Shown here in pieces: positions 1,435 through 61,477 of a stretch of 64,000 nt of DNA. The position numbers and the translations under genes are program-made. The stretch spans positions 1,426,001 to 1,490,000 of the forward strand of contig JAWWNJ010000025.1 of NCBI GenBank assembly GCA_037176885.1, in the 5' to 3' direction. How positions within the stretch are numbered: position 1 is the stretch's first letter; each line of letters starts with the position of its first letter. The notes under the pieces are model-generated. The model was given only the letters and a program-made list of their open reading frames with translations, made no database searches and was not told where the DNA came from. Source of the DNA: Favolaschia claudopus (Eukaryota; Basidiomycota; Agaricomycetes; Agaricales; Mycenaceae).

Positions 1435-3231
1435 TGTAACGCTGACACTTGAATATATCAACTGAAGTGCTAAATATAGCGCAGCAGAGAATCTACCACC
1501 AAAATATATATATAACACAATCAACCAACACACACAACACTACAACACAAATATCTCCACAAGATACACTCAAATGTCTCTCGAAGAGTTCGTGGGGTTC
1601 GATCCGAAATCCAGATGTCACAGTGACGAGGATATAAGTCGACTTGCAAGTAGGAACCTTGCACAAAACACGCTCTCACACACCGTAGATGGAAGTGATT
1701 CCGTCCGCGGACCTTTCCTAAAAATAGGAACTATAAACGGTAGGATACAAGATACCCAACGCAGTTGAATATCAGGGCGAGATTGAAACAATGGCCACAG
1801 ACAGTTTCCGCGGCAGAATGCACAATTCTTATAGCGCCAGTTACACTATAGACCTGAACCTCCAAATTCCAGGAACCTTTGACACTCCTTTATATAGCAC
1901 AAGCCTTTCAGACGAGGACTAATCAGATCTCTTCCGGTTATGCGCCAGCAGTCCCAACGCAATGCTTCAGCAGATGGACAGTTCCACTCTTCCTCAGACT
2001 CAGGGAGATACTAGTTCACTCTCGAGCACACGTATCCTTACAATGAGATAGGCAGTCCGCGGGCAGTAGAGGCAGGCAGTTCCTAGCACACTAAGGCCAC
2101 GACAAAGCTACTCGAAAGCAAAGCCTCCGCGGGTGAACACTCTCGAAACAATGCTTAGATTCACACTTGAACTGAACTTCAACACAATTTCTATTAAGAC
2201 AAACGAGTAGACAATATCTTTATATATGCCTCTACGTTGCTGCCTGAGTTCACCAACGCTGTCCAGTAGACTGAGCGCGATGTCCTCCAGCTCAACGAGA
2301 AATACAGGTCCTTTTATACTAATGCCAAGAAATACATCACATAAATAGTACAGAGTAAGCAATGTCGATCCAATTGAGTAGAGAGATGGTATATTGGTAT
2401 TTGGGTGTCCCGGCGGACCTTCGGCAACCTCTTGGCTTGTCGATCCAACGGTAGAAAGTCAGCAATTATGACTCCCACGGTTGAATCACTGAATTGCGGA
2501 AGCCCGCGGAACGCCATCATTGGTGATCCCGTCAATCCGTCACTGGCGGCAACCCTTCCGGTGGTGCCATCAACGCCTCTAATAACTCCTAAGACTATTC
2601 TTGGGACATTCCAATTCACTCGCAAAATCACAGGCTCGTCTGTTGTCCAATTTATCAAGCCACCAAGTCATCCGCGCTGACTCCAGTATAGAAATAGATT
2701 TCTAATGAAGTTGCCGCACTGGTTCGGCTTCAGCATCACATCATCAACTCTCCTGTCAAAGACCTCATGTCTTGCCATAACTCTGCCTTCTGATCCTAGC
2801 ACCGGCATCTCCTGTATGAGATCCCTTTCCGCTGTTCCAGCCGTCTATTTATAGTCGGCAGCCCGCGGCATCTGTCCTTTGACTGATGTTGACTCTGATA
2901 GCCCCCGCGGCGCCTCCTACATCCTTGTAGACCTTCGTCTAAGTCCGTAGTACACAAGTACTTGACTCTTCGTCACTCTTCTGAGGGTTCTGTTATAGAA
3001 CAGATCCATAGTACTGCAGTAGGCTATTAATATAATGCCTTTCTCCTGTGATGGGTTTTACGGTCAACAGCTCGGAGCTCACTTTGACCCTCCTTAGTGT
3101 CACCAACAGAGGTACTGACTTCCTATTGATAGTCGAGTAAGACTATAGTCGTGGCGGGTAGTTGGGTTGTTTAGGGCCGCACTTGACTTAAAATAGCCAG
3201 ATATAACGCGCAAAAATGGCCAGTCGTTACA
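1435..3231 (-). repeat. Gypsy LTR (3' LTR of the minus-strand element)
   Basis: Direct repeat of 17673-19469 at a constant offset of 16,238. Terminal inverted heptamers are TGTAACG and CGTTACA. It contains seven CCGCGG sites (1705, 1808, 2057, 2127, 2504, 2863, 2905) and several short hairpins, e.g. TTCCTA-AAAA-TAGGAA at 1715-1730, TAGAAAT-AG-ATTTCTA at 2689-2704 and GTTCT-GTTAT-AGAAC at 2987-3001. Small open frames inside it show no protein signature, so I treat it as non-coding. Confidence 0.95.
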
Positions 3232-3241
3232 TCTCCCCTTC
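3232..3241 (-). other. Polypurine tract
   Basis: Read on the minus strand the sequence before the 3' LTR is TTTAGTGAAGGGGAGA and the LTR starts directly after it. This is the expected position and composition for the plus-strand primer of an LTR retrotransposon. Confidence 0.85.
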
Positions 3242-4071
3242 ACTAAATCTAGACCGTCCCCGGTCTATAGCCTGCACCAAAATCCGTGCTTATTTTTGGC
3301 TTTAAATCTAGTGGACCGCAAGGATGACAACTCCCGCGGACGTCTATTTTTAGACCAACTGCAAACTACTTTTCTGTCCCTTTTTCCTCGAGCGACTTGT
3401 TTTTAGTCAAGTCCTCCTGCACTACTCGCTAAGACGTTCCGTCTGTTAATTTAGACAGTTGCTTCCGCGGACGCCAATCATTACGGCATATGACGTCATT
3501 GACACTTTCTGTCTGAAATATTCGGACAGGGGTTTTTCACCTCTTTGCCTTATATTTTTCGACTCGGTCCAATTTTCGCCGTCCTGGACTTCGCCAACCC
3601 TAATCCTAAGTGCGTCTGCACTTCCGCTTTATCTAATCTGAACATCCGACTTATCTTTTGCCGCGGCCATCCCTGCCCTGGCAATCAGCCTAGGTTTTTC
3701 ATCAAACCTTAATACTAGCTTCTAATTACTGCGGCTGCGCCCCAGATTAACTTCCGTCTTCTGTGCTTCCTTCCAGGTGAGTCACAGATTGTTCAATTCA
3801 ATTCCTTGAAGGCGTGGCGACTTAGAGAAAATTTCTCTAAGTCCGTTCTGCCTTATAGACTAAGTGGGTGCGCCGTTTAGCGCCCACTTCTTCCTTCCTT
3901 TCACCACCACCACACACAGTGTTTTACACCCTGTGGCTAGCTCCTTGGTTGTCCCTCTGGCCCTTCGACGCGCTCCTCGACGCCTACGTCGCCGAGTAGC
4001 CCACTTCTTGGATTCTCTTTTCCTCTGTCATCCACAACAATCACCTCCCTCTGGTGTTCGTCGCCGGACGT
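3242..4071 (+). promoter_or_regulatory. Hairpin-rich non-coding region upstream of the first opposite-strand gene
   Basis: No gene is visible. The stretch holds several short inverted repeats: GTCTA-TTTT-TAGAC (3342-3355), GACTTG/CAAGTC (3394-3413), a near-palindrome at 3509-3529, and a perfect 12-bp-arm palindrome with a 1-nt centre at 3819-3843. A perfect CRE/ATF-type octamer TGACGTCA lies at 3491-3498. CCGCGG occurs at 3334, 3465 and 3661. By position it would be the promoter and 5' leader of the gene starting at 4072. The regulatory role is inferred. Confidence 0.5.
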
Positions 4072-6004
4072 ATGCCCGTTAAGAAAGGCACCGCCGAACC
4101 CACTCGCCGTTCCACTCGCAAGACTACCATGGCCTCTACTAAGCGTCCGCGCAAGACTAAAGCCGGTGCTAAAGTGGGCCCTGGCCGTTCCTCCGTCGTC
4201 GTCCCCAAGGACGTCGAGCCAGACCTTCCCGAATCAGAAGAGTCAGCGGCGTCGACCCCAGAGCCTCCCGCGCCGTCATCCTCTCGCAAAATCAAGTCTC
4301 CACCCGCGGAGGAGCCTGTCGTCGTTGCTGCTGGGCCGTCGACTCGTTCAGCACTGTTTGAACCGCCGCCGCAGATCCCCTCTGACGATCCTTCTGCTGT
4401 TTTCTGGGCTCCATTCGACAATTCTTTCACGCGCGACCTGATTCCTCTTTTTATCCACAAGCCGCCGCCGCCGTCGGTCGAGCAGGTCCGTAGTTTAGCG
4501 TTATTGACTCCAGTCCTCGTGCGTGAAGACCTCTTTTCATCCTCAATCCAATACTTATTATTCCTTTAGCACCCTTATCGTCGTGAACACCCCAACGTGC
4601 CGTTGAATGTCGAGGCATTCCTGTGGGCCCTCGCTCGCGCTGCTCGTCACATCGCCAAGACTATTCCCGACGTCGACGCAGCGGAGGAGTTGATCGCGCT
4701 CTACCGCGATCTTCGTCCCTCAGCTGAAATCCAGGACACCATCCTCGCCGCGGACCCGCTAGGCAAGCATTACGGTGCGGGGTTCTGCGTCCCCAGCATT
4801 GTCACCGTGCCTACACGAAAGCCCCGGGCTCCCGTTTTCTCTGATAGCGAAGATTCAGACGCCGAGGAGCCGCCTGCGAAACGTCCGCGCATGGCCATCT
4901 CTCCTTCACCTGGGCGCTCGCCGACTCCAGCTCCCGCGTCTGAGCGTTCTGCGACCCCAATGGGACCCGTCTTCGACATTACCACTCGCGCTCAGCTCAT
5001 CAATATGTTCTTTGATATTCCCGAGACCGGTAAGTCTGGAGGTTCTGTTCTCTTCGTACAATGGCTCATCTTTGGTTTCCTTTATTCCAGGTATGCCTTC
5101 TCCAGCGCATATGAAGATCCCTACGTCCTACGTCCAGACGTCCCTGGTGCCGCCCATGCTGTCCAAGATCGCCTTTCCCTGTCTGAATTGCGTTCTCAAC
5201 TACGCCGAATGCAGGCCCGTCGGGGGTCGTTCGTCCGTCTGCACTCGCTGCGCGGACCGCAAGCATCAGTGTTCTCACAACTGGACGCCTCTTGAATTCA
5301 AACGGTTCGCCGAATGCATGCGCCCCTTCATCGCTGTCGCTCCCCACACCATCGCCTCCGCACTTCAACGTCTTGTGCAGGCGTACGAGGATGCCCAGTT
5401 CACGAGCTTCGCCCACGTCCGCGCGCTCAACAATCTTCGCTTGCAAGCGCAAGACTCCGCCCTCACGATCTCCGGTGCGGAGCGCTCCCTTGCCGTCGAG
5501 CAGTTCAACGACTTCTTTGTGGATAAAGAAGGCGCGGATCTTGCTCGCGATTTTGTGGCGCATGTCTTGTCGAAGAAGCCCTTCTACGAGCTGGAACGAG
5601 ACTTCGTTGCTCATGAGGCTACTTCAAGCGCGATTCCGGTAACGAACGAGGCGGGCGACGTCGAGAGCTATATGTATCATCCCAAGTTCTCCGCGCGCAT
5701 CATTCCCGACTTAGATCTCAAAGGCGTTTTGAAGACGGTGGACCCTCAACTCGGTCCTGTTGCTTCTTTCGACGACCTTTCTGCCGCGGGACCCTCTTCG
5801 TCTAAACTTGCCCCTCCGACGTCTACACTCGCAGCCCCACCGTCTACTCCTCCTCCGCCTGCGTTTGGACCTGCGCCTTTGTTGGAGTCTTCAACTCCCA
5901 GTTCGTCAAAGGCCCATCCTTCCGCTTCCGCCAGTCCGCGCAAAGGGAAGGAGGTGGAGAAGTCTCCCAAGGTGGATAAAGGCAAGGGGGCTGATCGCGG
6001 ATGA
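4072..6004 (+). CDS. Zn2Cys6-like cysteine-cluster protein 1 of the gypsy element (595 aa, 3 exons)
   Basis: Inferred exons 4072-4485, 4570-5029 and 5091-6004 have GT-AG borders and keep frame to give 595 aa. The start is ATG 4072 (MPVKKGTAEPTRRSTRKTT), a Lys/Arg-rich N-terminus like a nuclear targeting or DNA-binding tail. A Pro/Ser-rich acidic stretch follows, then SDSEDSDAEEPPAKRPRM, which resembles an NLS. At about residues 322-352 six cysteines are spaced C-x2-C-x6-C-x9-C-x2-C-x6-C, within the fungal Zn2Cys6 spacing rule. The second half (CTRCADRKHQC) is basic; the first half lacks the usual basic residues. A helical segment and a Ser/Pro/Lys tail follow. The gene lies inside the retrotransposon, antisense to gag-pol. 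A regulator acting on the element is a guess. I recall similar clusters in hypothetical proteins of Agaricomycetes. Confidence 0.75.
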
Positions 6005-7021
6005 ACGCTCGTGCCGTACACTGAACTTTTTCCTTGCTATATCTTATTTTCTTGATCATTACGAATATCTTGTTGTGCTGTCGTCTCCAGCCGTATCGTA
6101 GACCAATTCAAAAAACCACTCTGTATATAGCTCGACTCAGTAGCCATAGCTTTAGTTTACTTTGTTTGTAAACCCGCTACTTCGAGTCCAATACACTAGC
6201 GCCCACTGGCGCCTATTGATGTCTTGATTCAACCGTGTGAACGCTTTCGTAAGACTTTTGGTCTTAAAGAAATTCACCAAGTCCACATCAACCGGCCATC
6301 ATGCCGTCATCAATCCTTTGGAGATTGCCGAAGACAGAATTTTGACCAAGTCCGTCGTCAAAACCCTTCTTCAACTTCTATTGGAATCAGTCCAATTTCT
6401 CCTGTACTTCAATCAGAAGTCATTCTTGACACTTAATTGACACTTTTCTTCAAGTCGTCAAAAAGTTTCCTCTAGTCAACTCTTCTTTCAGTTTTCCGCG
6501 GGTCTATTTATAGCACAGTTTAAACTCTCTCTCTTAAGTACCGCGGTAGATACTTAACGTAGAGTTCTGTACTCCCGCATGTATATTCCACAAGCCTCTT
6601 GCTTAATAGAATAACCACTATCATCCCTAACTGCCTCTTAAAATCGATCGTATAGGAACCGATCGACATTATTCAGCCTTAAAACTCTTCCGCAACTTGG
6701 CTTTTGCAACGCTCCAGCTCTACATCGTCTAATTTTAGCAAAACGAAAATTCCCTGTCTCTTTATGGGTAAATTTGCAAGGCCCGCGGTGGCGCAATACC
6801 CTCCCGCGGTTGTCTGTTGCTCTATATTCTCCCCCTCACTAAAGAAAAAAGATGCGTCCTCGCATATTCAATTCAGTTAGAGGTGCAACCAACAGCCTTG
6901 GCTCGTTTTTACGATCGTAGCCGGTCATTAAATTTTTAACCAAGCTCTCCTAGTCAAAACTATAAATTGACTTCTGTTCTCAGCTCATTTCTTCGTCGCC
7001 TACAGGCCTTCATCGCATGCC
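6005..7021. promoter_or_regulatory. Non-coding, hairpin-rich spacer between opposite-strand genes 1 and 2
   Basis: No convincing gene. It holds perfect short inverted repeats: GCGCC/GGCGC (6199-6212), AAGAC/GTCTT (6251-6265), CAATC/GATTG (6311-6327), TTGGA/TCCAA (6381-6395), TTAAGTA/TACTTAA enclosing a CCGCGG (6534-6557) and TCGATCG/CGATCGA (6644-6666). CCGCGG occurs at 6496, 6541, 6783 and 6804. The composition resembles the LTR. Its last part carries a second polypurine-like motif at 6828-6843 and then the leader of the gene starting at 7022. Confidence 0.5.
6828..6843 (-). other. Internal polypurine-tract-like motif
   Basis: The plus-strand sequence TCTCCCCCTCACTAAA differs by one base from TCTCCCCTTCACTAAA at the true PPT (3232-3247). 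It may be a central PPT or the fossil of an older 3' end of the element. Confidence 0.45.
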
Positions 7022-8719
7022 ATGGCACCACGCTCTGCGCTCATCGAAGCGTCCAACCTTATCCTTGAAGCTGAACGCGACTTTCAACGGGTCGTCGCCC
7101 TCAGAGACTCTCTCCCTGCGGCTGTCATTCACTCTACGCTCAGCACGTTCGCAGCCGCGGCGGTTCGTCCATATTTTTGCATGCCCAAACGCTTTCCGCG
7201 CTAACTCTGTCTATTTTTAGTCGGACTTCAAGCTATTCGCTCAGTCCCTTCAGCACCCCTCCAACGAGAAGGTCGTCAATGCTCTTACTGCCGCCTCCAA
7301 CGCTATGAGGGACGAGTACAAGATCTCCAAGTTCAAGATCCCTACTTCCCAGCTTGGCGCTATCGACCGCATGCTCAACAACTACCACAACGCCAAGAAT
7401 AGCAAGCGCGACAAGGCCGCGGCAGCCATCAAGGGCCACCGTGCTAAGGCTCAAGTTCAACAGGTGCTTTCTCGTGTTCGTCGCATGCCTCCTGGTCCTG
7501 AACTGTCCTCTATAATGCAGGGTAAGTCTGTTGAAGTCATCGACGATTCCGGGGACGACGACTCCGCGGAGGAAGCTTCCGTCGCTGATCAGGTATTCCT
7601 CAGACGTTACGAAGATTATCTATGGTATTAACCAACTCCAGATGGATCTCGACAAGGACGAAGGTAGAATCAACCCTCTCTATATCGCTGCCATGGGAGC
7701 CAACTATCGCGCAGGAGGCTCCTCTCTGCCCCCTGGTCTCTCCTTCCAGAAGAATAGTGCGCCCAAGGTCAAGAACGACACTGTGCGTCTATTTTTATCC
7801 TTCTGCACTTTCTTCTTCATTCACCCAGATTTCCGTTTGTTCGTCTTGCTCTTCTCACCAGCACGGCCAGGACAACTGCCCTGTCAAACCCAAGGACGGT
7901 ATCCCTGCCGGTAAGGCTCCTCAAGACGACGGCAAATCCGTGCGCATCATTGACGATCCCGTTCCAGAGGACATGTTCAAAAATGTTCGTAAAGTTCCTG
8001 TGCGTTCGCCTTTTCACTTTGTTCTATTTTTATAACATCGTTTTATTAGGGCAAAGGCCCCAAGGCGAAGAACTCCGACACATCTTCCACTTGTCCTGAC
8101 GAGGACGAGAAGGTACGTAACCCATATCCCACGGTTGAATTCTCGCTTAACGTTCATCAATTGTTGTAGATGGCGCCCGCGGAACCACTTATGGTGCGTG
8201 AAATATTCGTCAACTCTGTTTCTCTGCTTAATTCTCGCTCATAGCCTGCTTTGTCGTTGAACCCTGTGTCCAACCGCAGCAACAAGCGTGCCCGTACCGA
8301 ACCGGATGACGTCGACCTCGACTACGAGCCCAAAGTCCCTGGTACGAGTTCATCTTCTCCTTGATCTAATTTCGTCTAATTTTTATTATAGACTCCATGG
8401 ACAAGGACCTCATCGCCATCATGCATCCGGACGATGTCAACAAGACCTGGAAGGTTTCTCAGAACCAACTCAAGCACTTGGACGCGCAAGGTTTCAAGGC
8501 TCGGGAGCGCTACCTCCGCCGCAACATGGCCCTCGCCTCCTTCAAGTATCGCTACTGGCTTCGCGCCTACGAGGAGATGGATGACCAGCTCGAGCAGCTC
8601 ATGAAGATCCATCACGCCGACAACGAGGATCCCATTATGCGCCCTGCTAGTTCCGCGGTATGTCTCTGCGTTTTATTTTTATAGCTCTCCAGCTAAACCT
8701 TTCCGCCTTCTAGACTTGA
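7022..8719 (+). CDS. Opposite-strand gene 2 of the gypsy element (about 415 aa, 9 inferred exons)
   Basis: Exons inferred at 7022-7162, 7221-7592, 7642-7782, 7862-7999, 8050-8112, 8170-8193, 8245-8341, 8392-8657 and a tiny last exon 8714-8719 keep one frame. The start is GCCATGG. Most introns begin GTGCG/GTACG/GTATG, and several contain a CTATTTTTA-type run. The protein starts MAPRSALIEASNLILEAERD (helical). Acidic stretches include VEVIDDSGDDDSAEEAS, followed by NKRARTEPDDVD (possible NLS), and it ends with a helical, aromatic-rich domain around FKYRYWLRAYEEMDDQLEQL. I recognise no known domain. It lies antisense to the retrotransposon transcript, upstream of the cysteine-cluster gene at 9305, and may work with it or be spliced to it. 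The 3' end is uncertain; an alternative acceptor stops it a few codons earlier. Confidence 0.65.
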
Positions 8720-9304
8720 TCGTCCTTCCGCGGCCTATATACCTATGTGCCTTCGCTCTTTAGACACATAAACCGTCGACTCTCAGTGTCCCCTATCGTA
8801 TCGTCGTGCGTTCAACCGCACATATTTGCTGTTCAACCAGCAACTGTCCAAATCCCCGGGTGTCTCGTATATACTTAGCAGTGCTTGCAATACAATTGTT
8901 TTGTCAAGCCAACTTCGTCCGATTTCCCGCAGTGTCTTGGACATCTCAGGAGTGGTAAGACTCTTTTTCCGCGCTCAGAATTCTAAAAATAGAACTCCAA
9001 TCGTCCAGTTCTACCTCAACTTCTCAAGTACTTCAAGCCGCCGCGGAAGCCTTTTTGTGAACGACTCCATTGCCGTGACCACCTACATGCTCCTTGAAGC
9101 CCTTATTCTACTGGATATTTTGCGCCTCTAAGTCTTGGCAAGCCTAGACTCCCAGTCTCACTCCTTTACTTTCCTCCGTCCCGCTTATGATCAATACAAA
9201 ATCTGATTCAAATAATCACAGGCAAGACATCTCCTCAGCAGTGTTTACTATTTAAACAGTGCCTCATAGGAACGTCTTCTCCCATAATATTCTTTTCTCT
9301 TTGC
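8720..9304. other. Spacer between opposite-strand genes 2 and 3
   Basis: No gene is supported. It contains CCGCGG at 8728 and 9041 and the hairpin TTCTA-AAAA-TAGAA at 8981-8994. It presumably holds the 3' end of gene 2 and the promoter of gene 3, unless both belong to one transcript. Confidence 0.4.
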
Positions 9305-10048
9305 ATGAGCATCCACGGCTTAGACGACGAAGAGAACGACGACTACTACGATTATCTCTACGACAGCCCCGACGAAATGGATCCTGCCGCAGTCCTTGCA
9401 GCCTTCGCACGCGATATCATAGTCCCTGTCAGCGAGATCCTTCCCAAGTTTCAAGCTGCCATCTATCTTATGGAAGATAATAAGGTGCGTCCTTAGTACT
9501 TTTTACTCTCAACTTCGACTGATCTATTTTTATCACCAGCCGACTGAACAGTGCTCTTGCTGCGCCAAGAAACACAACGTCGAGCCTTGCGCTCCTACTA
9601 GTTGGGGTCCTCCTTGCCACAACTGTCTTATTCAATTCCATCCTTGCGACTTCACCAGCAAGGACAAGATGATCGAAAGTTGGAAGAAGCGCGGAGGTCC
9701 TGGTGCGTCCATTTATAGATGTCCAGACTTATTCCTCGCTAATCCTCCCCTTCAGCTATCATCTTCGGTCGCAGCACCGTCGACCTGGAGACCATGCTTA
9801 ACCAGCTTGACGAAGCTTTCGCCTACCACCATGAGTTTTCCATCAAGGCTCGCAAGGCCCAGTTCATCAAAGCGGTCAACAAGATCGATGATCTTCATGA
9901 ACTCGCCTATATGCGCAAGGAACTCATCCTTCACGGCTACGACAACTCCGCCCTCGGCTTCGTCGAGCTTCGTATGTCCAAGCTCCTTCCTCCTGGCATC
10001 TCCATTCACTCCGTCGAATCGCCTGACAAGTACGATCTCCCATTTTAA
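9305..10048 (+). CDS. Zn2Cys6-like cysteine-cluster protein 2 of the gypsy element (211 aa, 3 exons)
   Basis: Inferred exons 9305-9484, 9540-9702 and 9756-10048 give 211 aa in one frame. The N-terminus is very acidic (DDEENDDYYDYLYDSPDEMD). Six cysteines fall at about residues 65-96 with spacing C-x2-C-x8-C-x8-C-x2-C-x6-C, close to but not exactly the Zn2Cys6 rule; the second half reads CHNCLIQFHPC. A long helical C-terminal part follows (about 110 aa, ending PDKYDLPF). The cluster resembles that of the gene at 4072, and both sit inside the retrotransposon antisense to pol. It ends 57 bp from the end of the convergent pol frame. A DNA- or RNA-binding regulator is inferred, not shown. Confidence 0.7.
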
Positions 10049-10104
10049 TCCTTCCGCGGAGAAGTTCTAATTTAAGATTACAGAGGCGCATACCACCACA
10101 ATCT

Positions 10105-13100
10105 TTAATGCTTCCTGCGTTTGGACCGTCTAGGACCAACCGACTCTTTTGGCTCATCGTCCGACTCTGCTTCATCATCATCGTTCTCAGTCTCCGATTC
10201 TGAGGACTCAGCCTTTTCGAAGTCTTCAGGTGTTACCCTTATATTTACTTTATCGAAGGCTAGATCCTTTATCTTCTTTGAGCTGCGCTCCCTTGTCTTT
10301 TCCCCTTCCGCGGGAATATCGTCCACTAGCTTTTCGAGTGTCTCTGTAGATACGTCAATAAACTTTTGGATGTTGAGCGGAATTTGCATTCGGCGACGTG
10401 CTAAGTATGGAACCACACGCCCCGCGGCTATCCTGTCATGGAATAACGCGCCGTTCATTTCAGCTAGGATATACGCTCCTCCCTTGGTACGTCTTATAAC
10501 AACCATTGGGCCAAGGTATCTCCCCTTCTGATCCATTTTAGAGTTCAGAGACTTCTCTACTTCAGTGTGGCGCACGAGAACCAGATCTCCCGGTTTGAAA
10601 TCATAGTTTTTAATCGTATGTTCATTGTACCGTTCGAGTTTCCGGACTTGAACCATTTTAGCATGATCTACCCGCTTCCTCATGTGTTCAACATGGGCTA
10701 CGTGCTTTGCTAAAGCTCTGGCTCTTAGCCCTATCAGTTCCGCGGTCGTCAACACTCGACCTGGTATCTCAACCAACCAAGTAGCTTCCTCAATATCCAA
10801 CGGTAGAATTGGATGCGCTCCAGTCACCGCAAAATAAGGTGAACAACCTAATCCTTTTCTAACCGTTACTCTGTCTGACCAAAGCATAACATGGAAGAAC
10901 CAGAACCATTTGGATGGGTTCTTGCCAGTCGCTTTGAACAATGCCTGACGCATTTGGAAGTGTCCACTTTCAATCTTCCCGTTCGCTTGAGAGTTGTATG
11001 GTGAAATCTGAATATTTGGTATTCCGTATTTCTGTTTCAACCATTCCACAGCTTTCTTGAACTGCCCCGCATTATCCGTTACAATCTGCTTTGGGCAACC
11101 CCAACGGCAAATTATCTCTTCAAATAGGAACATTCCAATTGCGTGAGCCGTGTCTCTTACAAGCGGTCTCGCTTCTAACCAAGAACTCAACGAGTCCCTC
11201 GCATCAACAACTAGTCCACATTTATTGGACACTTGCCCCATTACCATTACATCGGTATGGATGACCTGAAATAGACTTGGAGTATGGGTCAAAACTGGCG
11301 GGACTTTCAACAGTGTATGTTGTCGGTTTTGGCAAGCGTCGCAAGACGCAATGTACCAAAATACATCTGCTTCTATTCCTGGCCACCAGAATCGCAGCGT
11401 AATCAATTCTCTAGTTGCATAACTTCCGCGGTGACCCAGACTGTCGTGAGCGGCCTTCATCATGTACATGCGGTGTTCCTTGTCAACAACTAACTGATTC
11501 GCAGTGCCAAAAGATTTCTTATACATCCTCCCCCCTTTCAAAAAGAAATGTGAGGCGAAGCGCATAAAACTTCTATACTCTGCATCATCATTCATTCCCG
11601 CGGGCCTTTTCATAGGGTCCGCTAGCCATTCCTTTACCAATGGTAATTTAGCATCTCGTTTTTTCATCCAATCCGAACGATGCTCTTCATCGTAAGGCTC
11701 TCGCTTCGACTCATCCCATTTCAATTCTAAATTTGGAATCAGAGGCTCCGTCATTAAAATATACTCAGGGATCTGCTTATTCTCCTTCGAGTACGCTTCT
11801 CTGCGTGCTCTTGCCAGATTAGCTTCAGTCATCCTGGCACTCTCGCAATCACGTTGGAAATCTTCCATACAAACTGCATCAACGTCCACAATCTCTGGCT
11901 GTTCCTCCTCCGACTGGAAATATCCACCTCTGGTATCAATAAGGTGTTTAAAGTCCTCGAATTCCAACGGCTGAGGGCCTTCCGCGGCAACGTCCTCATG
12001 GTCCTCGGGAGGTTCATTTTGGTCATAACCCTCTTCCGAATTTTTGAATTGTTCATCCCCAGGGAAAGGATCTCTCCTTGATAACCCGTCGGGTGCAAAC
12101 TTTTCACCAGGGACATGCTTCAGCTTAAAATGGAACATCAAGATCTTTTCAATCCAGCGGTTAATCGTGGCGTTGGGGCCCATTCCAGGGTTTTTCAACA
12201 TGCCCTTGATGTATAACGCGTCGGTTTCAACCACAAGCTTCCTTGCTCCGAAAATCCAATAATACATGGCCTCTAGAGCTCTCATCAACCCGTACAATTC
12301 TCGTTTAGGTTGCGAATAGTTCGCCTCGGTCTTCCCTAACGTTATACTCGCAAATCGTGCAAAGTATTTCTTCTTAGGATCATCTGGGTCTAGCTGGTAG
12401 ATAATAATTCCTACAGCTCTCCATGAAGTATCCACTTGAATAACTATGTCCGAATCCCAGTCGTACCGCAGGGGTTTTAAAGCTGGGCAGTTTTTCAACC
12501 TTTCTCTAATTTTGGCCTGCGCCTCATCACAGTCCGCGGTCCATACAAAGGGAACGTCCTTCTTCGTCAGCTCATTGATAGGTGCAACAATGTCGCCGTA
12601 CCCTTCAATAAAGCTCCTCAGAACACCGACGGTGCCTAGGTACGCCTTCACTTGCGTGAAAGAGTCACAGGAACCCCAGTTATTAATAACGTCCACCCTC
12701 TTAGGATCGGGAATTCTTCCGCGGTAAGAGCAAATATGCCCTACAACTTCAAACTCATCCGCACAGAGGACTAACTTCTTCCCTGAAAAAGTTCCTCCTG
12801 CATAAGCCATTCTAGTCACAACTCGATTTAAATTCTCGAGATGTTCCCAGATAAACCTTCTAATTCCAGGATTCGCAGCAATCCTTTCCCAGTCGCCATC
12901 TTTTGTCTCGTACCTCGTAGGTCCCCCGCGGACAGGTACATCGTCTATGTAAGGGATCGTTACATGCGGCATTTCATCTCTCAAGATGGTACAAACGTCC
13001 TCGTGAAACACGGGAACAGAATTGGTCCATCCCATCGGTAATTTTACTAACCTCAGTGCCCCAAACGGCGTCTGGAAGGTCGTATAATCCCTTGAAGATT

Positions 13101-14367
13101 CCGCTAAGTCCCTATTATCATATCCGACAAACATATCCAACGAAGCTCCGCACGCTCGACCAGCAAAATGTTCTGCTAGCTTCTCCGTGGCTGGAGGTAC
13201 CCCAGAGTGTTGAATTGTAACCTCATTCAACCTCTCTAACGCGTGTACAATTCTCAATGACTTTCCGTCTTTCTTTATCACCGCAAAAATAGGTGACCTG
13301 TAGGACGAGTTGGATGGTTCATACACCCCAGCATCTAATTTTGACTTGATGATGCGGCAGAACTCTTCAAAATGTCCAGGCGGAATTGGGATTTGCGAGC
13401 ATACCCATGGTGTATGTGGTACCACAGGCATATCAACGGGCGGGAAATATTCATGTTTGAATTGCCCTCGCTCATCCTCTTCCCAGGCGAAATGCTCGTT
13501 ATGCAACATCATAAAATGATGAAGCAACTTCATCTCTTCAGGCAATAAGAACCCACTGTTATGAGTCTTTTCAAATGCCTCCATTCGCTCCGCGGTATAT
13601 CTTCCTACTGGGTGAATCTCAGGAATATCCGTTTCTATTTTTGGCATATCTTTTAAAGGATCCCCCGTGATATTCCGCACGATCCTGAACTTCTCATCCA
13701 CTTTTCCAAGGATAGGCTTAATCTTTTCCGCGACCGGTTTGTACTTCTTAGTAGCAAATACTCGCTGTTTTCCCATAGAGATGCCCAAATTACCAAAAAT
13801 AAATTGCTCTCTTGGTACTTCCGGCACCGGTACTTCAAAATTCAGCTTCCCCTTCGCAGCAGGGACTGTCTTAGCTCCCTCTGCCTTCGAAGTCTTCTTA
13901 GACTTCTTCTTCTTCTTTTTCTTCTTGTATTTTCGCTTTCTACGGTTCACTTTCGGCGCACGGTCCGCCGCCTCCGCGGAACTATTTTTATCATCATTCA
14001 CGCGGGAATCTCGCTCCATGTAGGCAAACGCAGACTTAGCCGAGCTATCACCCGGATTAGGTGCATGCTTTCCACGGTTCGATTTTCTCGGGCTTCCCGG
14101 GCTTCCAGATTCCGTGAACAAGAAGACATCTGTGCCTTTATCTTTCTCTACTTGCCCCGCGTATTGATTCAACAATACACTAGCATTCTTATCTCCTGCA
14201 AATGCGTCCCTAGACGCCAATAAATATGCCATCGTCCTGTCATCCTGCGTCACAACATCCCCGTCTTTCGGTAAACCATATCCTGTGCACACCAACTCCC
14301 CATGGTCGTTGTACTCAAACGCGGCCATTACTTCTCCCCCATCTTTGAGTTCCTCGAAGACTTGCAA
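10105..14367 (-). CDS. pol: Gypsy pol: reverse transcriptase, RNase H, integrase
   Basis: About 1,420 codons are open without a break. In order: a Lys-rich N-terminal segment; reverse transcriptase with PMGWTNSVPVFHEDV and active-site YIDDVPVRG; RNase H starting around IVIQVDTSWRAVG, with a later VETDALYIKG; an integrase zinc site (HDSLGHRG...CDACQNRQ); a DDE core with Asp in VIHTDVMVMG, Asp in QIVTDNAGQFK and Glu in NGKIESGHF; a GPY/F-like segment (KGRYLGPMVVIRR); and an acidic tail ending RRSKRRKH. No chromodomain is seen. The frame is offset -1 from the protease frame, which it overlaps at 14328-14367, so expression probably needs a frameshift; no classical slippery heptamer was identified. 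The open frame suggests an active or very recently active element. Confidence 0.93.
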   Translation of the reverse strand: MQVFEELKDGGEVMAAFEYNDHGELVCTGYGLPKDGDVVTQDDRTMAYLLASRDAFAGDKNASVLLNQYAGQVEKDKGTDVFLFTESGSPGSPRKSNRGKHAPNPGDSSAKSAFAYMERDSRVNDDKNSSAEAADRAPKVNRRKRKYKKKKKKKKSKKTSKAEGAKTVPAAKGKLNFEVPVPEVPREQFIFGNLGISMGKQRVFATKKYKPVAEKIKPILGKVDEKFRIVRNITGDPLKDMPKIETDIPEIHPVGRYTAERMEAFEKTHNSGFLLPEEMKLLHHFMMLHNEHFAWEEDERGQFKHEYFPPVDMPVVPHTPWVCSQIPIPPGHFEEFCRIIKSKLDAGVYEPSNSSYRSPIFAVIKKDGKSLRIVHALERLNEVTIQHSGVPPATEKLAEHFAGRACGASLDMFVGYDNRDLAESSRDYTTFQTPFGALRLVKLPMGWTNSVPVFHEDVCTILRDEMPHVTIPYIDDVPVRGGPTRYETKDGDWERIAANPGIRRFIWEHLENLNRVVTRMAYAGGTFSGKKLVLCADEFEVVGHICSYRGRIPDPKRVDVINNWGSCDSFTQVKAYLGTVGVLRSFIEGYGDIVAPINELTKKDVPFVWTADCDEAQAKIRERLKNCPALKPLRYDWDSDIVIQVDTSWRAVGIIIYQLDPDDPKKKYFARFASITLGKTEANYSQPKRELYGLMRALEAMYYWIFGARKLVVETDALYIKGMLKNPGMGPNATINRWIEKILMFHFKLKHVPGEKFAPDGLSRRDPFPGDEQFKNSEEGYDQNEPPEDHEDVAAEGPQPLEFEDFKHLIDTRGGYFQSEEEQPEIVDVDAVCMEDFQRDCESARMTEANLARARREAYSKENKQIPEYILMTEPLIPNLELKWDESKREPYDEEHRSDWMKKRDAKLPLVKEWLADPMKRPAGMNDDAEYRSFMRFASHFFLKGGRMYKKSFGTANQLVVDKEHRMYMMKAAHDSLGHRGSYATRELITLRFWWPGIEADVFWYIASCDACQNRQHTLLKVPPVLTHTPSLFQVIHTDVMVMGQVSNKCGLVVDARDSLSSWLEARPLVRDTAHAIGMFLFEEIICRWGCPKQIVTDNAGQFKKAVEWLKQKYGIPNIQISPYNSQANGKIESGHFQMRQALFKATGKNPSKWFWFFHVMLWSDRVTVRKGLGCSPYFAVTGAHPILPLDIEEATWLVEIPGRVLTTAELIGLRARALAKHVAHVEHMRKRVDHAKMVQVRKLERYNEHTIKNYDFKPGDLVLVRHTEVEKSLNSKMDQKGRYLGPMVVIRRTKGGAYILAEMNGALFHDRIAAGRVVPYLARRRMQIPLNIQKFIDVSTETLEKLVDDIPAEGEKTRERSSKKIKDLAFDKVNIRVTPEDFEKAESSESETENDDDEAESDDEPKESVGPRRSKRRKH

Positions 14368-15713
14368 AAATCCGGTTTGGTCTCCGCGGGAGCTGTCTGG
14401 ACTGGCTTTCCTGTGTCTCGATCTATCTTGACCCCCCTCTGAGAGGTTGCAAAGGTATTTTTGTTCCCTGTGCGCGGATCCGTAATTGTGATCTCGACTT
14501 CGCCGGTTCTCTTGCTCGCAAACACAGCTTCTGACAAAATTTCGAAGGGGCGTCCCAAAAGAACTTCATAAGGCACCTCATCAATAATATGAACTTGAAG
14601 GTGCATCACTATCCCTTCAAAATTAAACGGCACATTTATAGCCAAGCCCAAAGTGGACTGAATCTGGCTATTCGCAGCAACCATCTCACAGACTATATTT
14701 GTATTCCAAGTCAAACCAATTTCCTTGGCCAACTGAGCATTCATTGATACAATCTGCGAGCCGCTATCCGTAATGGCTTCCACATACTTGCCATTCACTG
14801 ACGGATGAATGCATCTGAGCTTTGCAGAGGAGCCCGCGGCCGGGACTTTAACAGCTTTCGCTTTTTCTCCCTCTGGTAGAGACTCATAGTATTGAAGGAC
14901 AGGGTCCCCACAAATAACGCTTCCCTCCGGTAAATCATGATCATTGGAGGTAACCAATTCAGGGAACGTGTCAAACATCAACACCGACACAGTCTTTCCA
15001 TCCTCATCTACAACTTCACAAGTTGTTGTCTCAACTCGAACGTTATCCTCAGCTTCACTTTCATCATCCGCGGGGCTCTCAGAGTCTGAGTCTTCATCCT
15101 CAAGCACCCTTTGGACGACAAAGTTGTGCACCTTGGTAGGAACAATATCACCAGAAGTAGTCTTCATAAATTTAGCTTTGTTCTTCCGCGGACCCCCAAT
15201 CTCAAGAGTTTTCCGGAGCATCTCGTTACTATCCAGCAATGTGCCTATTTTGACTGGTATCACAGTTTCCCGAATAGCGTCTGCGATCTCCGCGGTAGCT
15301 TTGTCTCGCCGCTGAGTATCTTTAGGCACTCTTGTTCTTCGTGAACCTGATGACCCTTGGCCATGTTGCTCCTCTGCTGGTTTTCGCGGGAACGCGGGTC
15401 GTACGGGAGGGTCAGATAGAGGTTTCACATCCTTGAACGGAAGTTCTTCCTTCTGATTTCTATTTCTGACACCAACCGACTCGTCCTCAGAATCACTGAC
15501 TTCTTCAACGGTGACTTTCCTCGTAGGTTGAGTGGAACGCTTCGGTAGCAACACTTCAACTCTATTCTCTCTGGCTGGCTTAATGGGCACCTTCCCATTA
15601 TTTTTCTCGGCTACTGTTTCTTTTTGTTGGTTTTTCTGTTTCTCTGGAACGCGGTCTTTGGCTTTCGGATCCTCAGGAGCTTTCCGCGAGCGAGTCTCCC
15701 TCATCGGAATCAC
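14328..15713 (-). CDS. Gypsy aspartic protease frame
   Basis: The frame is about 460 codons. Its first half is charged and low in complexity (RKAPEDPKAKDRVPEKQK...). The second half is a retropepsin-like domain with catalytic DSGSQIVSMNAQLAKEIG and a C-terminal flap/strand region including VLLGRPFEIL. The first in-frame ATG is at 15704. The frame opens over the gag stop at 15710-15712 and is shifted -1 relative to gag, so a gag-protease fusion by -1 shifting or reinitiation at 15704 are both possible. It ends at 14328, overlapping pol. It would process the Gag-Pol polyprotein inside the virus-like particle. Confidence 0.85.
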   Translation of the reverse strand: MIPMRETRSRKAPEDPKAKDRVPEKQKNQQKETVAEKNNGKVPIKPARENRVEVLLPKRSTQPTRKVTVEEVSDSEDESVGVRNRNQKEELPFKDVKPLSDPPVRPAFPRKPAEEQHGQGSSGSRRTRVPKDTQRRDKATAEIADAIRETVIPVKIGTLLDSNEMLRKTLEIGGPRKNKAKFMKTTSGDIVPTKVHNFVVQRVLEDEDSDSESPADDESEAEDNVRVETTTCEVVDEDGKTVSVLMFDTFPELVTSNDHDLPEGSVICGDPVLQYYESLPEGEKAKAVKVPAAGSSAKLRCIHPSVNGKYVEAITDSGSQIVSMNAQLAKEIGLTWNTNIVCEMVAANSQIQSTLGLAINVPFNFEGIVMHLQVHIIDEVPYEVLLGRPFEILSEAVFASKRTGEVEITITDPRTGNKNTFATSQRGVKIDRDTGKPVQTAPAETKPDFCKSSRNSKMGEK

Positions 15714-17137
15714 TGAAAATCCTTCTGTGCCGCCATAAACTGCGCTATCTTTGCAACAGACTCCTCGATTCTGTCCAGTCTATCCGCGGTGGCAGGAGAG
15801 TCTGACTCTTCCCTGGATTCACTCGCAAACGACTCCGCGGCCGGTGCAGTGGGGTCACTAGCATAATAATACTCAAACGCCTCTTGGTTATAATACACCT
15901 GAGTACGATTGTTATAGTAATCCCGCACTTTGGTCATGTAACTCTTATTCTTGGGTTCCCGCGGCAAAGCCTTTCCGTCATAGAAGAACATACGCCCATC
16001 TTTCAGGATTAGCAGGCCCCCAGTAATATCATCCCTTCTGTGCTTGCAGTCCGCAACATAATGCGAAGGATCCCAACAATAGTAACAGCCCGTAGGCTTG
16101 CCTTCTCTAAGAGGCGGCCTATCCGGTGTATACGATGGTCTTTCTGGCCCGTATTCTCTTCTTTCTACAGGACGACTAGGATTATTGGAAGCCCCTTTCG
16201 ACAAAGCTTCATGCATCTTGGACATGACCTGTTTTTGGTCGGTCGTAAATTTGTCCAGATGATTAGCCAGGGTCTCTTCCATTTTGTCCTTAATCTCCTT
16301 ACTCGACTGGAGAATTTTCTCCTCTCTGGCTTTGGAATCAGCCTCAAGCTTCTCCAATCTAGCCTTCAACTTGGCAGCTTCATCTCCACCCTCTGAACTA
16401 CCCGAAAATAGAACAGCCTTCCTCTTTGTATCCGAGGGAGTTGTGAAGAAAATAGAGTCATTACTTTTGATCAACGACTTCAGTATTTCCTCAAAGTCTG
16501 CCCATTCGTACAGGTCATCAGGATGAGTGTAGGCCGGTTTATAGGCCTTTCCTTTGTTCGCAGGCAGCGCTTCATATTCAGATTTTGCTCGCTGATACGA
16601 AGTAAGTTCCGTCGGACTTCTGGCCAGCACGATATTGCGAAGAGTCTCCCTGAAGGTAGGGTGAATACCTTTCAAAAAGTCTTGCGCTAACTCGCGCCTT
16701 GAGAGCATCTCTCGGTCCTTGTTCATCACTGCAACTCGTCCGCGGAACTTTCGACAATAGTTGGCAAATTCAACTTCCTCATCTATTCTCACCGGACGGT
16801 CTGTATACTGTTTCAAGAAAGACGCCCAGCCCGCGCGGGAACCTTTCTCTACTGCACGAACTTCAGGATAAGCATCCATCAATTCCGCCTTCCATTCCTC
16901 ATACGTTCCATTCGTATAGGTGGGCAAAGCTTGCCATTCTTTCTGCACTTTACTGTTCGCATAGTGGTGTGCTATCCACTTCTTGCTCTGCTCACTAAGC
17001 TTTCCTTGCTTCGCGATGATATCTTCGATCCCTTCCAAATACTTGGGCAAATCCCCTGTTTCGTCATCGAATTTCAGGTTATGTCTCCCAAAAATATCCG
17101 GGATTTTGCTCTTATCAATCTCGTCGTAGGTAGCCAT
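15710..17137 (-). CDS. gag: Gypsy gag with CCHC zinc knuckle
   Basis: From the first ATG at 17137 (MATYDEIDKSKIPDIFG) there are 475 codons. The frame stays open upstream to 17578 without an ATG and encodes a basic, Ser-rich stretch with PVKKRRRARS, so a spliced or non-AUG N-terminal extension is possible. The central capsid-like region is helical (FLKGIHPTFRETLRNIVL). A coiled coil lies around KLKARLEKLEADSKAREEKI. A single zinc knuckle CYYCWDPSHYVADC (C-x2-C-x4-H-x4-C) lies toward the C-terminus. Gag would form the particle and package the RNA. CCGCGG sites occur in the coding sequence as elsewhere in the element. Confidence 0.85.
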   Translation of the reverse strand: MATYDEIDKSKIPDIFGRHNLKFDDETGDLPKYLEGIEDIIAKQGKLSEQSKKWIAHHYANSKVQKEWQALPTYTNGTYEEWKAELMDAYPEVRAVEKGSRAGWASFLKQYTDRPVRIDEEVEFANYCRKFRGRVAVMNKDREMLSRRELAQDFLKGIHPTFRETLRNIVLARSPTELTSYQRAKSEYEALPANKGKAYKPAYTHPDDLYEWADFEEILKSLIKSNDSIFFTTPSDTKRKAVLFSGSSEGGDEAAKLKARLEKLEADSKAREEKILQSSKEIKDKMEETLANHLDKFTTDQKQVMSKMHEALSKGASNNPSRPVERREYGPERPSYTPDRPPLREGKPTGCYYCWDPSHYVADCKHRRDDITGGLLILKDGRMFFYDGKALPREPKNKSYMTKVRDYYNNRTQVYYNQEAFEYYYASDPTAPAAESFASESREESDSPATADRLDRIEESVAKIAQFMAAQKDFQ

Positions 17138-17652
17138 AGTGTTTGTTTGTGGGGGGTTTATCTTGGCTACGGAGTTCGAAATAGCCTCGATGGTCTGATT
17201 CAAATGATCAGATAGCTCGCCGTCCGAGTGGGTTGCGTGTCCCTCAAAGGGTAATGCTGCAGAAGTATTTATAACTTCCGCGGAACGCGCTCTCCTTCTC
17301 TTCTTAACTGGTGACGAACTAGACGACCGTCCTGTACTGGAATTTTTGGTCGTACGCGGTTTTCTGCCAGACGTCGAGGGTCCCCAATTTACAGACTCGG
17401 GTATAAGACTGTTCCTTGAAGTCGACGTTTGAGCGGGTTCTTGTAGTGCAACCCTGGCTTGCTCTAGCAAACTCCTGGCACCTGCTCCTGTATTTAATGG
17501 AGACGGGCTACGCTGGTGTCTGCCTCTCCTCGACGTCTTTCTAGTACGAGGATTTGTTTGGGCTGGAATTCTCGACAACCCAGGAAAGTCCCTTCTCTAG
17601 ACTCTCCCAACTACAGCAACGCGTTTTGTTTATCAACAAATTACCACCGAAC

Positions 17653-17670
17653 CCCTCGCGGTGGGCTCCA
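17653..17670 (-). other. tRNA primer binding site
   Basis: Read on the minus strand, two bases (TC) after the 5' LTR comes TGGAGCCCACCGCGAGGG. Its complement ends ...GTGGGCTCCA, a tRNA 3' end with CCA and a U discriminator, preceded by a T-arm-like segment. U73 is typical of tRNA-Cys; that identity is a guess. It fixes the orientation of the element. Confidence 0.85.
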
Positions 17671-17672
17671 GA

Positions 17673-19469
17673 TGTAACGCTGACACTTGAATATATCAAC
17701 TGAAGTGCTAAATATAGCGCAGCAGAGAATCTACCACCAAAATATATATATAACACAATCAACCAACACACACAACACTACAACACAAATATCTCCACAA
17801 GATACACTCAAATGTCTCTCGAAGAGTTCGTGGGGTTCGATCCGAAATCCAGATGTCACAGTGACGAGGATATAAGTCGACTTGCAAGTAGGAACCTTGC
17901 ACAAAACACGCTCTCACACACCGTAGATGGAAGTGATTCCGTCCGCGGACCTTTCCTAAAAATAGGAACTATAAACGGTAGGATACAAGATACCCAACGC
18001 AGTTGAATATCAGGGCGAGATTGAAACAATGGCCACAGACAGTTTCCGCGGCAGAATGCACAATTCTTATAGCGCCAGTTACACTATAGACCTGAACCTC
18101 CAAATTCCAGGAACCTTTGACACTCCTTTATATAGCACAAGCCTTTCAGACGAGGACTAATCAGATCTCTTCCGGTTATGCGCCAGCAGTCCCAACGCAA
18201 TGCTTCAGCAGATGGACAGTTCCACTCTTCCTCAGACTCAGGGAGATACTAGTTCACTCTCGAGCACACGTATCCTTACAATGAGATAGGCAGTCCGCGG
18301 GCAGTAGAGGCAGGCAGTTCCTAGCACACTAAGGCCACGACAAAGCTACTCGAAAGCAAAGCCTCCGCGGGTGAACACTCTCGAAACAATGCTTAGATTC
18401 ACACTTGAACTGAACTTCAACACAATTTCTATTAAGACAAACGAGTAGACAATATCTTTATATATGCCTCTACGTTGCTGCCTGAGTTCACCAACGCTGT
18501 CCAGTAGACTGAGCGCGATGTCCTCCAGCTCAACGAGAAATACAGGTCCTTTTATACTAATGCCAAGAAATACATCACATAAATAGTACAGAGTAAGCAA
18601 TGTCGATCCAATTGAGTAGAGAGATGGTATATTGGTATTTGGGTGTCCCGGCGGACCTTCGGCAACCTCTTGGCTTGTCGATCCAACGGTAGAAAGTCAG
18701 CAATTATGACTCCCACGGTTGAATCACTGAATTGCGGAAGCCCGCGGAACGCCATCATTGGTGATCCCGTCAATCCGTCACTGGCGGCAACCCTTCCGGT
18801 GGTGCCATCAACGCCTCTAATAACTCCTAAGACTATTCTTGGGACATTCCAATTCACTCGCAAAATCACAGGCTCGTCTGTTGTCCAATTTATCAAGCCA
18901 CCAAGTCATCCGCGCTGACTCCAGTATAGAAATAGATTTCTAATGAAGTTGCCGCACTGGTTCGGCTTCAGCATCACATCATCAACTCTCCTGTCAAAGA
19001 CCTCATGTCTTGCCATAACTCTGCCTTCTGATCCTAGCACCGGCATCTCCTGTATGAGATCCCTTTCCGCTGTTCCAGCCGTCTATTTATAGTCGGCAGC
19101 CCGCGGCATCTGTCCTTTGACTGATGTTGACTCTGATAGCCCCCGCGGCGCCTCCTACATCCTTGTAGACCTTCGTCTAAGTCCGTAGTACACAAGTACT
19201 TGACTCTTCGTCACTCTTCTGAGGGTTCTGTTATAGAACAGATCCATAGTACTGCAGTAGGCTATTAATATAATGCCTTTCTCCTGTGATGGGTTTTACG
19301 GTCAACAGCTCGGAGCTCACTTTGACCCTCCTTAGTGTCACCAACAGAGGTACTGACTTCCTATTGATAGTCGAGTAAGACTATAGTCGTGGCGGGTAGT
19401 TGGGTTGTTTAGGGCCGCACTTGACTTAAAATAGCCAGATATAACGCGCAAAAATGGCCAGTCGTTACA
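17673..19469 (-). repeat. Gypsy LTR (5' LTR of the minus-strand element)
   Basis: Second copy of the 1,797-bp LTR, apparently identical to 1435-3231, with the same seven CCGCGG sites (17943, 18046, 18295, 18365, 18742, 19101, 19143). The gag-pol promoter should lie here. Confidence 0.95.
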
Positions 19470-19473
19470 GCGG
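19470..19473. repeat. Target-site duplication GCGG, right copy
   Basis: Matches 1431-1434 and directly follows the CGTTACA end of the right LTR. Confidence 0.85.
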
Positions 19474-56392: not shown

Positions 56393-56418
56393 CTCCCCCG
56401 TGACGAGACAAGTCTCGC

Positions 56419-61475: not shown

Positions 61476-61477
61476 GC

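What the first reader, a model, noticed from the sequence alone, without database searches (positions are those of the whole stretch)
1435..19469. CCGCGG is scattered about 12-fold above expectation across one retrotransposon and stops at its borders
I count 53 CCGCGG sites in 18,035 bp; about 4.4 are expected for equal base frequencies. Seven lie in each LTR and 39 inside (e.g. 3334, 3465, 3661, 4304, 4748, 5784, 6496, 6541, 6783, 6804, 7155, 7417, 7564, 8177, 8653, 10054, 10308, 11426, 12534, 13974, 14384, 15068, 15784, 16740, 17278). They occur in LTRs, spacers, introns, antisense genes and gag-pol alike. In the other 46 kb I found only five (19853, 47916, 48650, 50503, 63951). A palindrome kept through coding and non-coding DNA suggests selection at the DNA level, for instance a protein-binding site spread over the element. 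No feature class describes this.
Basis: partly seen in the sequence, partly recalled or inferred. Interest (0 to 1): 0.92.

Follow-up and report, generated by a model that had tools for sequence, protein, structure and literature searches.

The report
Retrotransposon families stamped with own palindromes
In a mushroom genome, a large jumping element carries the same six-letter palindrome dozens of times along its length, its sister family does the same, and a more distant family carries a different palindrome instead, which suggests that each family marks its own DNA, perhaps for a protein it encodes itself.

Summary
In detail: 53 CCGCGG in 1435-19469, 5 in the other 46 kb. Without the second LTR there are 46, against 2-4 expected; one-letter neighbours sit near background. 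In gag-protease-pol, 20 of 37 positions where the protein permits the hexamer carry it (1.7 expected). Flanks extend the palindrome to about CTTCCGCGGAAG, in coding and non-coding sites separately.
The genome fits Favolaschia claudopus. Across ten sibling copies, site positions changed less than half as often as flanking positions. A sister family (RT 90-91% identical, antisense proteins about one third identical) has 44 sites; 10 of 21 gag-pol sites keep their place, the rest turned over. A more distant Ty3 family is not enriched for CCGCGG (4) but has 32 TCGCGA; another shows mixed TTC/AAT-CGCG words; two show only weak signals. The four families read from LTR to LTR each hold an antisense frame with a Zn2Cys6-like cysteine cluster.
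Best reading: a family-specific DNA address of everted CGG or CGA triplets, read by an element-encoded zinc-cluster protein to escape silencing or drive transcription. DNA-level selection is well supported; reader and effect are inferred. It works like VANC/VANDAL; homology was not shown.

The parts
1435..3231 (-). LTR, downstream copy relative to gag-pol (sense of the element is the minus strand); 7 CCGCGG
   Evidence: Identical to 17673-19469 over 1797 bp; TGTAAC...GTTACA ends; GCGG on both flanks reads as a 4-bp target duplication
17673..19469 (-). LTR, upstream copy relative to gag-pol; the same 7 CCGCGG
15713..17596 (-). gag-like reading frame (stop to stop); 5 CCGCGG against 0.4 in synonymous shuffles
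   Evidence: assigned by position and a CX2CX4HX4C knuckle read by eye; no Pfam gag hit
14331..15779 (-). aspartic protease reading frame; 5 CCGCGG against 0.6
   Evidence: gag-asp_proteas PF13975 E 2.3e-07
10105..14565 (-). pol reading frame of 1486 aa: RT, RNase H, integrase; 12 CCGCGG against 0.9
   Evidence: RT_RNaseH, Integrase_H2C2 above cut-off, RVT_1 below it; the 120 listed relatives are 55-75% identical
4072..6004 (+). antisense gene A, three exons 4072-4485, 4570-5029, 5091-6004, 595 aa, cluster CX2CX6CX9CX2CX6C; 3 CCGCGG
   Evidence: spliced model; annotated proteins of Favolaschia claudopus at 99, 91, 71 and 64%; cluster spacing
7022..8720 (+). antisense gene B, several short exons (rough model by eye); 5 CCGCGG in the span
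   Evidence: open frames; two exons have counterparts in the sister family, pieces of 28, 57 and 34% identity
9306..10048 (+). antisense gene C, three exons, about 211 aa, cluster CX2CX8CX8CX2CX6C; no CCGCGG in exons
   Evidence: spliced model; sister-family match 33%, E 2e-38, cysteines kept; cluster spacing; no hit in the protein collection
3334..3666 (.). three CCGCGG upstream of gene A (3334, 3465, 3661)
6496..6809 (.). four CCGCGG upstream of gene B (6496, 6541, 6783, 6804)
8653..9046 (.). CCGCGG 8653, 8728 and 9041 at the end of gene B and upstream of gene C
1470..8992 (.). second enriched word CTA(A/T)4TAG at 1470, 1718, 2845, 3344, 6504, 6729, 7211, 8983, none in the exons tested (gag-pol, A, C)
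   Evidence: 8 against 0.2 expected; 0 outside the element, where 0.2 was expected too

Best explanation
CCGCGG is a protein-binding dyad kept by selection on DNA along the whole element. The likeliest reader is a zinc-cluster protein from the element's own antisense genes (A, perhaps with C), binding as a dimer to everted CGG triplets with no spacer (TCCGCGGA), the word that yeast Pdr1/Pdr3 bind. Dispersed over LTRs, spacers and gag-pol, the sites would let the protein coat copies of its own family, most likely to counter silencing and/or activate transcription. Shown: enrichment, exactness, flank palindrome, DNA-level effect in coding sequence, conservation, turnover at nearly constant number, and a different word in another family. 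Inferred: that A or C binds, the dimer geometry, and the anti-silencing or activating effect.
For: DNA level: synonymous shuffles give 0.9/0.6/0.4 for pol/protease/gag against 12/5/5; a dinucleotide-preserving synonymous shuffle gives 2.1, maximum 8 of 300 runs, against 20; 20 of 37 permitted positions used against 1.66 expected. Binding-site shape: symmetrised flanks favour T, T, C outward from the core in 19 non-coding and 27 coding sites separately. Spacing more even than random: CV P 0.014, binned dispersion P 0.016-0.049. Conservation in 10 sibling copies (about 8 cover gag-pol): distinct changes per position 13/264 in sites, 146/1345 in flanks, 90/368 in one-mismatch hexamers, 1880/14247 elsewhere; gag-pol 0/126 against 219/6692 (the two bait sites excluded). 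Sister family: 44 sites in 16.4 kb, next palindrome 8; 10 of 21 gag-pol sites at the same place against 1209/7237 other hexamers (P 0.001) and 34/156 two-CpG hexamers (P 0.014), with 11 and 9 private sites. Family code: a more distant family has 32 TCGCGA and 4 CCGCGG, with 11 TCGCGA in pol against 1.1 in synonymous shuffles, maximum 5 of 1000; another has CGCGGAA 18 and AATCGCG 8, both strands counted. Proteins: antisense cysteine clusters in the four families read from LTR to LTR. Precedent: TCCGCGGA bound by zinc-cluster proteins Pdr1/Pdr3 (PMC11111045, passages).
Against: No binding data. Proteins A and C of the window's element give no Zn_clus hit; relative P0123 E 1, sister-family A E 7.6, family 4 cluster 16.0 bits against a 21-bit cut-off, family 3 none. 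The first cysteine loop of A lacks the basic residues that contact DNA in Gal4-type clusters (recalled). A and C are only 31-33% identical between the two families that share CCGCGG. Exons of A and C are not clearly enriched. Structure predictions failed (mean pLDDT 33.6 and 39.4). Two of six families show only weak words; in family 5 the non-palindromic words point mostly one way (CGCGGAA 8 to 2, AATCGCG 6 to 0, counted in the sites printed), which a DNA dyad does not predict. At protein level, pol homologues neither support nor refute site conservation. Families 2 to 6 rest on one copy each.
Confidence: 0.55

Rival explanations
1. The site is read by a host zinc-cluster or CpG-binding factor that the element recruits for expression or for an unmethylated state; the antisense proteins do something else.
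For: A host Pdr1-like factor could bind TCCGCGGA. The element has CpG observed/expected about 1.0 against 0.72 outside. A second, MEF2-like word CTA(A/T)4TAG suggests other regulator sites.
Against: A promoter site needs a few copies, not 20 of 37 permitted codon contexts in gag-pol. A CpG sensor would not single out one hexamer with its neighbours near background. Another family uses TCGCGA in the same genome, so the word follows the element rather than the host.
Confidence: 0.2
2. The words work in RNA: they condense, dimerise or package the genomic RNA or bind an RNA-binding protein.
For: All sites lie between the LTR ends and could be in the RNA; GC-rich palindromes serve as retroviral dimer initiators (recalled). 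In family 5 the non-palindromic words point mostly the same way (8 to 2 and 6 to 0 in the gag-pol stretch), though coding constraint could do this.
Against: Sites are no more unpaired than the same hexamer implanted elsewhere (0.25 against 0.29, P 0.27). In family 6 GTCGCGG stands 5 to 4 in the two orientations.
Confidence: 0.12
3. The sites serve integration or replication, for example tethering, target immunity or recombination, rather than transcription or silencing.
For: Whole-element spread and near-even spacing suit self-recognition. The single target duplication is GCGG, which is anecdotal.
Against: Nothing found speaks for it in particular; one insertion cannot test target choice, and I did not map other insertions.
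Confidence: 0.1
4. Base composition, codon usage, mutation bias or a spread micro-repeat makes the count.
For: An order-4 Markov model predicts 42, which is circular here.
Against: Exact word, near-background neighbours, synonymous nulls, conservation and family-specific words; flank preference fades beyond about three bases.
Confidence: 0.03

Closest known systems
VANC proteins and VANDAL target motifs, Arabidopsis (PMC5735166: abstract, Results part 1 and Discussion read; PMC10398659: abstract read)
   Same: Element family with its own extra genes; short word concentrated in its own family; related families have other words; extra proteins with highly variable parts
   Different: VANDALs are DNA transposons; VANC21 sites lie in non-coding DNA, targets often form tandem repeats, and binding is shown in vivo and in vitro. 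Here the elements are Ty3 LTR retrotransposons, the words are scattered through coding DNA too, and no binding is shown
Pdr1/Pdr3 and the PDRE TCCGCGGA, yeast (PMC11111045, passages)
   Same: Same 8-bp dyad; zinc-cluster proteins
   Different: Promoter elements of host genes, not dozens along a mobile element
LTR retrotransposons with antisense extra genes: Grande, RIRE2, Retand in plants; Boty brtn in Botrytis (PMC7264820, passages and one reference title)
   Same: Extra genes antisense to gag-pol, in plants between pol and the 3' LTR, function unknown, some products nuclear
   Different: No dispersed family-specific word is mentioned in the passages I saw
DNA uptake sequences and Chi sites of bacteria (recalled)
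   Same: Short words scattered in coding and non-coding DNA for self-recognition
   Different: Cellular genomes and other machinery

Membership tests
Ty3-type LTR retrotransposon | LTRs and protease, RT, RNase H, integrase in that order | tested here: met
VANC/VANDAL-like self-recognition (function) | Short word enriched in one element family and not in its surroundings | tested here: met
VANC/VANDAL-like self-recognition (function) | Related families have other words | tested here: met
   of 5 other families, another word clear in 2, same word in 1, weak in 2; one copy each, two of them gag-pol stretches only
VANC/VANDAL-like self-recognition (function) | Sites in non-coding DNA, often as tandem repeats | tested here: not met
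   21 of 46 sites in gag-pol, dispersed
VANC/VANDAL-like self-recognition (function) | Element-encoded protein binds the word and removes silencing marks | not testable with these tools
   needs EMSA/ChIP and methylation data
VANC protein family | Sequence homology with VANC | not tested
   no VANC sequence was compared
Fungal Zn(2)-Cys(6) cluster, PF00172 | CX2CX6CX5-12CX2CX6-8C spacing (recalled consensus) | tested here: met
   A clusters of families 1 and 2 and one cluster each in families 3 and 4; C is CX2CX8CX8CX2CX6C and does not fit strictly
Fungal Zn(2)-Cys(6) cluster, PF00172 | Pfam score above the curated cut-off (21 bits) | tested here: not met
   best 16.0 bits, E 0.013 in family 4; 9.9 bits P0123; 7.2 bits family 2; none for the window's own proteins and family 3

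The most novel reading that the evidence does not exclude
Ty3 families of this mushroom carry a half-site address code, CGG or CGA triplets around a CGCG core, written at about half of the places where the proteins permit it in the one family counted, and read by zinc-cluster dimers encoded antisense in each element: CCG|CGG in two sister families, TCG|CGA in another, and mixed TCG|CGG where two readers may pair. Address and reader change together, so that each family opens only its own copies.
Probability: 0.4. Interest if true: 0.95.

Novelty: new variant of a known kind. Interest (0 to 1): 0.88.

Why it matters
It would extend sequence-specific self-recognition of mobile elements from plant DNA transposons to fungal LTR retrotransposons, with recognition sites written into coding sequence through codon choice. 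It suggests a role for antisense extra genes of retrotransposons, an open question in the review PMC7264820 (passages seen), and offers several natural candidate site/reader pairs in one genome for testing how zinc clusters choose CGG or CGA half-sites.

Tried and rejected
Compositional explanations: rejected. RNA presentation: no difference. Site residues in pol against 120 homologues: not distinguishable from other residues (mean frequency 0.51 against 0.55 for all columns, P 0.58; rare residues 4 of 17 against 162 of 1246, P 0.17); motif-compatible peptides are not enriched in the protein. The three gene A sites across annotated paralogues P0121-P0124: compatible with conservation in most, one replaced (A to V in P0121), too few to count. 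Relatives of pol in IMG/VR: none found; GTDB contigs: none, then one remote 27% match. Gene C in the protein collection: none of 192 candidates. Structure models too poor to search. Gene C against solved structures: weak protein disulfide-isomerase matches (E 0.001) outside the cysteine cluster's first half, not pursued. Literature: no paper of the library holds Zn2Cys6, CCGCGG and retrotransposon together, nor Favolaschia claudopus with 'transposable'; searches gave nothing on such a system in the listings seen. The minus-strand ORF lines are wrong (strand not reversed) and were not used; one search repeats them correctly. I first took gene A's cysteine spacing for X5; one search gives X6.
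Full report
What is there. The element at 1435-19469 is a Ty3-type LTR retrotransposon on the minus strand: identical 1797-bp LTRs and a putative 4-bp GCGG target duplication, protease, RT, RNase H and integrase. On the plus strand, between pol and the 1435-3231 LTR, lie three intron-bearing genes A, B and C (B is a rough model). The sequences on its two sides match the two ends of a CxC4 (KDZ-transposase-associated) domain. Gene A has four hits in the protein collection, all annotated in Favolaschia claudopus, in a search that scored only the 7997 candidates sharing most words. The window's genome has 264,566,041 bases in 460 contigs, against 264.58 Mbp in 461 contigs published for that species (PMC10905254, passages). 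The species name is an inference from these facts.

The observation. 53 CCGCGG inside, 5 outside. On the non-redundant 16,238 bp: 46 sites; expected 2.2-2.4 with the motif masked; the 18 one-step neighbours total 65 against 47-50. The next palindrome has 10. The largest hexamer z in 25 Markov-2 simulations of the element is 4.7; CCGCGG has 20.3.

DNA-level selection. Shuffling synonymous codons leaves 0.9, 0.6 and 0.4 sites in pol, protease and gag against 12, 5 and 5, where the frames overlap at their ends. Keeping dinucleotides as well gives 2.1, maximum 8 in 300 runs, against 20 for non-overlapping frames. Of 37 positions where the three proteins permit the hexamer, 20 have it, 1.66 expected (pol 12/19, protease 4/9, gag 4/9); gene A 3/15 (1.38 expected) and gene C 0/2. 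Density per kb: LTR 3.9, intergenic 3.9, gag-pol 2.8, gene B span 2.9, A exons 1.7, C exons 0; non-coding against coding P 0.17.

Shape. The three bases outside the hexamer prefer T, T, C outward, giving about CTTCCGCGGAAG, in the 19 sites classed non-coding and the 27 classed coding separately (gene B's exons were only partly in the coding list). Sites are spread more evenly than random.

Conservation within the family. Ten sibling copies were fetched, of 13 places computed from the rows shown. One search scored 94 matches of the RT segment (of 1717 candidates): 66 at 98-100% identity and 28 at 90-91%. The copies were found by a pattern that contains sites 6783 and 6804, so these two were left out. 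Not all ten are complete; the gag-pol bases compared correspond to eight copies. Distinct changes per position: sites 13/264; one-mismatch hexamers 90/368 (P 4e-12); 15-bp flanks 146/1345 (P 0.001); other 1880/14247 (P 9e-6). By region: gag-pol 0/126 against 219/6692; LTR 1/42 against 86/1521; the rest 12/96 against 1575/6034. Six of 44 scored sites are lost in at least one copy, and three extra sites exist only in copies. Copies share ancestry, so events are not fully independent.

Sister family 2 (one copy, L026-L027). 44 non-redundant sites in 16,423 bp, next palindrome 8; T is preferred next to the core. In gag-pol, 21 and 19 sites, 10 at the same aligned position, against 1209/7237 other hexamers and 34/156 two-CpG hexamers; core identity 0.75 against 0.59 in flanks. 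So number is nearly kept while about half of the sites turn over. All three antisense genes have counterparts: A 31%, C 33%, pieces of B 28, 57 and 34%, with the cysteines of A and C kept, whereas the RT segment is 90-91% identical. The second word CTA(A/T)4TAG occurs only twice there.

Other Ty3 families of the genome (found with a Mycena chlorophos pol homologue; one copy each, chosen from the 33 scored matches). Family 4 (L028-L029): 4 CCGCGG but 32 TCGCGA in 12,727 bp, next palindrome 9, none in the 5.7 kb of flanks held; flank preferences extend it to about AGCTATCGCGATAGCT; even spacing P 0.008; pol 11 against 1.1 in synonymous shuffles. Family 5 (8 kb around gag-pol, L032; 72.6% identical in DNA to family 4): CGCGGAA 18 (1.1 expected), AATCGCG 8 (0.5), TCGCGGA 10 (0.8), both strands counted, so that a palindromic site counts twice. 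By place that is 14 CGCGGAA sites, 4 palindromic, 8 in gag-pol sense and 2 antisense; AATCGCG has 1 palindromic and 6 sense sites. The one-sidedness is not predicted by a symmetric DNA site and may be coding constraint. Family 6 (8 kb, L033): weak GTCGCGG 9 (0.9) and AGTCGAG 11 (1.7), z 8.3 and 7.1 against a null maximum of 7.3. Family 3 (L030-L031): CCGCGG 2; weak CGAGCTC 13 (2.1), z 7.6 against a null maximum of 6.1. Thus clear words in 4 of 6 families, weak in 2.

The candidate reader. Cysteine spacing: A family 1 CX2CX6CX9CX2CX6C, family 2 CX2CX6CX11CX2CX6C; family 4 CX2CX6CX8CX2CX7C (Zn_clus E 0.013, below the curated cut-off); family 3 CX2CX6CX8CX2CX7C; C in families 1 and 2 CX2CX8CX8CX2CX6C. 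All lie antisense, beyond pol. The family 3 and 4 clusters come from a pattern scan of all six frames and are not gene models. Zinc-cluster dimers read CGG triplets (recalled), and everted CCG|CGG within TCCGCGGA is the yeast PDRE (PMC11111045, passages). TCG|CGA and TCG|CGG are the same geometry with changed triplets. This is the reasoning for the best explanation; binding has not been shown.

Function. Coating of the family's own copies against silencing, as for VANC (PMC5735166, sections read), fits the spread over coding DNA better than a promoter role alone. Sites upstream of genes A, B and C and in the LTR, with a MEF2-like word CTA(A/T)4TAG outside the exons tested (8 against 0.2), fit an added role in transcription. 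I give 0.55 to an element-encoded zinc-cluster reader with one of these effects. After checking the orientation counts of family 5, I raised the RNA rival from 0.10 to 0.12.

Noticed in passing
20691-29082: 255-bp terminal inverted repeats, 100% complementary, packed with ATTTCCGG-type palindromes such as TATTTCCGGACCCCGGAAATA (24 of ATTTCCGG, all in the two arms): a young DNA transposon with transposase-site-like arrays.
   Followed up: partly
1470, 1718, 2845, 3344, 6504, 6729, 7211, 8983: CTA(A/T)4TAG, a MEF2/Rlm1-like box (name recalled), 8 in the element against 0.2 expected, none outside (0.2 expected); four lie within 20 bp of a CCGCGG.
   Followed up: partly
743-1492 and 19409-19900: The element interrupts a CxC4 (KDZ-transposase-associated) domain: its two parts lie on either side.
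   Followed up: partly
L027 and window 4072-10048: Antisense proteins A and C are 31-33% identical between two families whose RT segment is 90-91% identical: very fast evolution or module exchange.
   Followed up: partly
38729-39937: A second CxC4 domain reading frame.
   Followed up: no
57331-60762: Ty1/copia polyprotein (RVT_2, integrase core); inverted and direct repeats nearby at 56202-62221.
   Followed up: no
34816-35643: Host-like gene with a GINS/Sld5 helical bundle domain.
   Followed up: no
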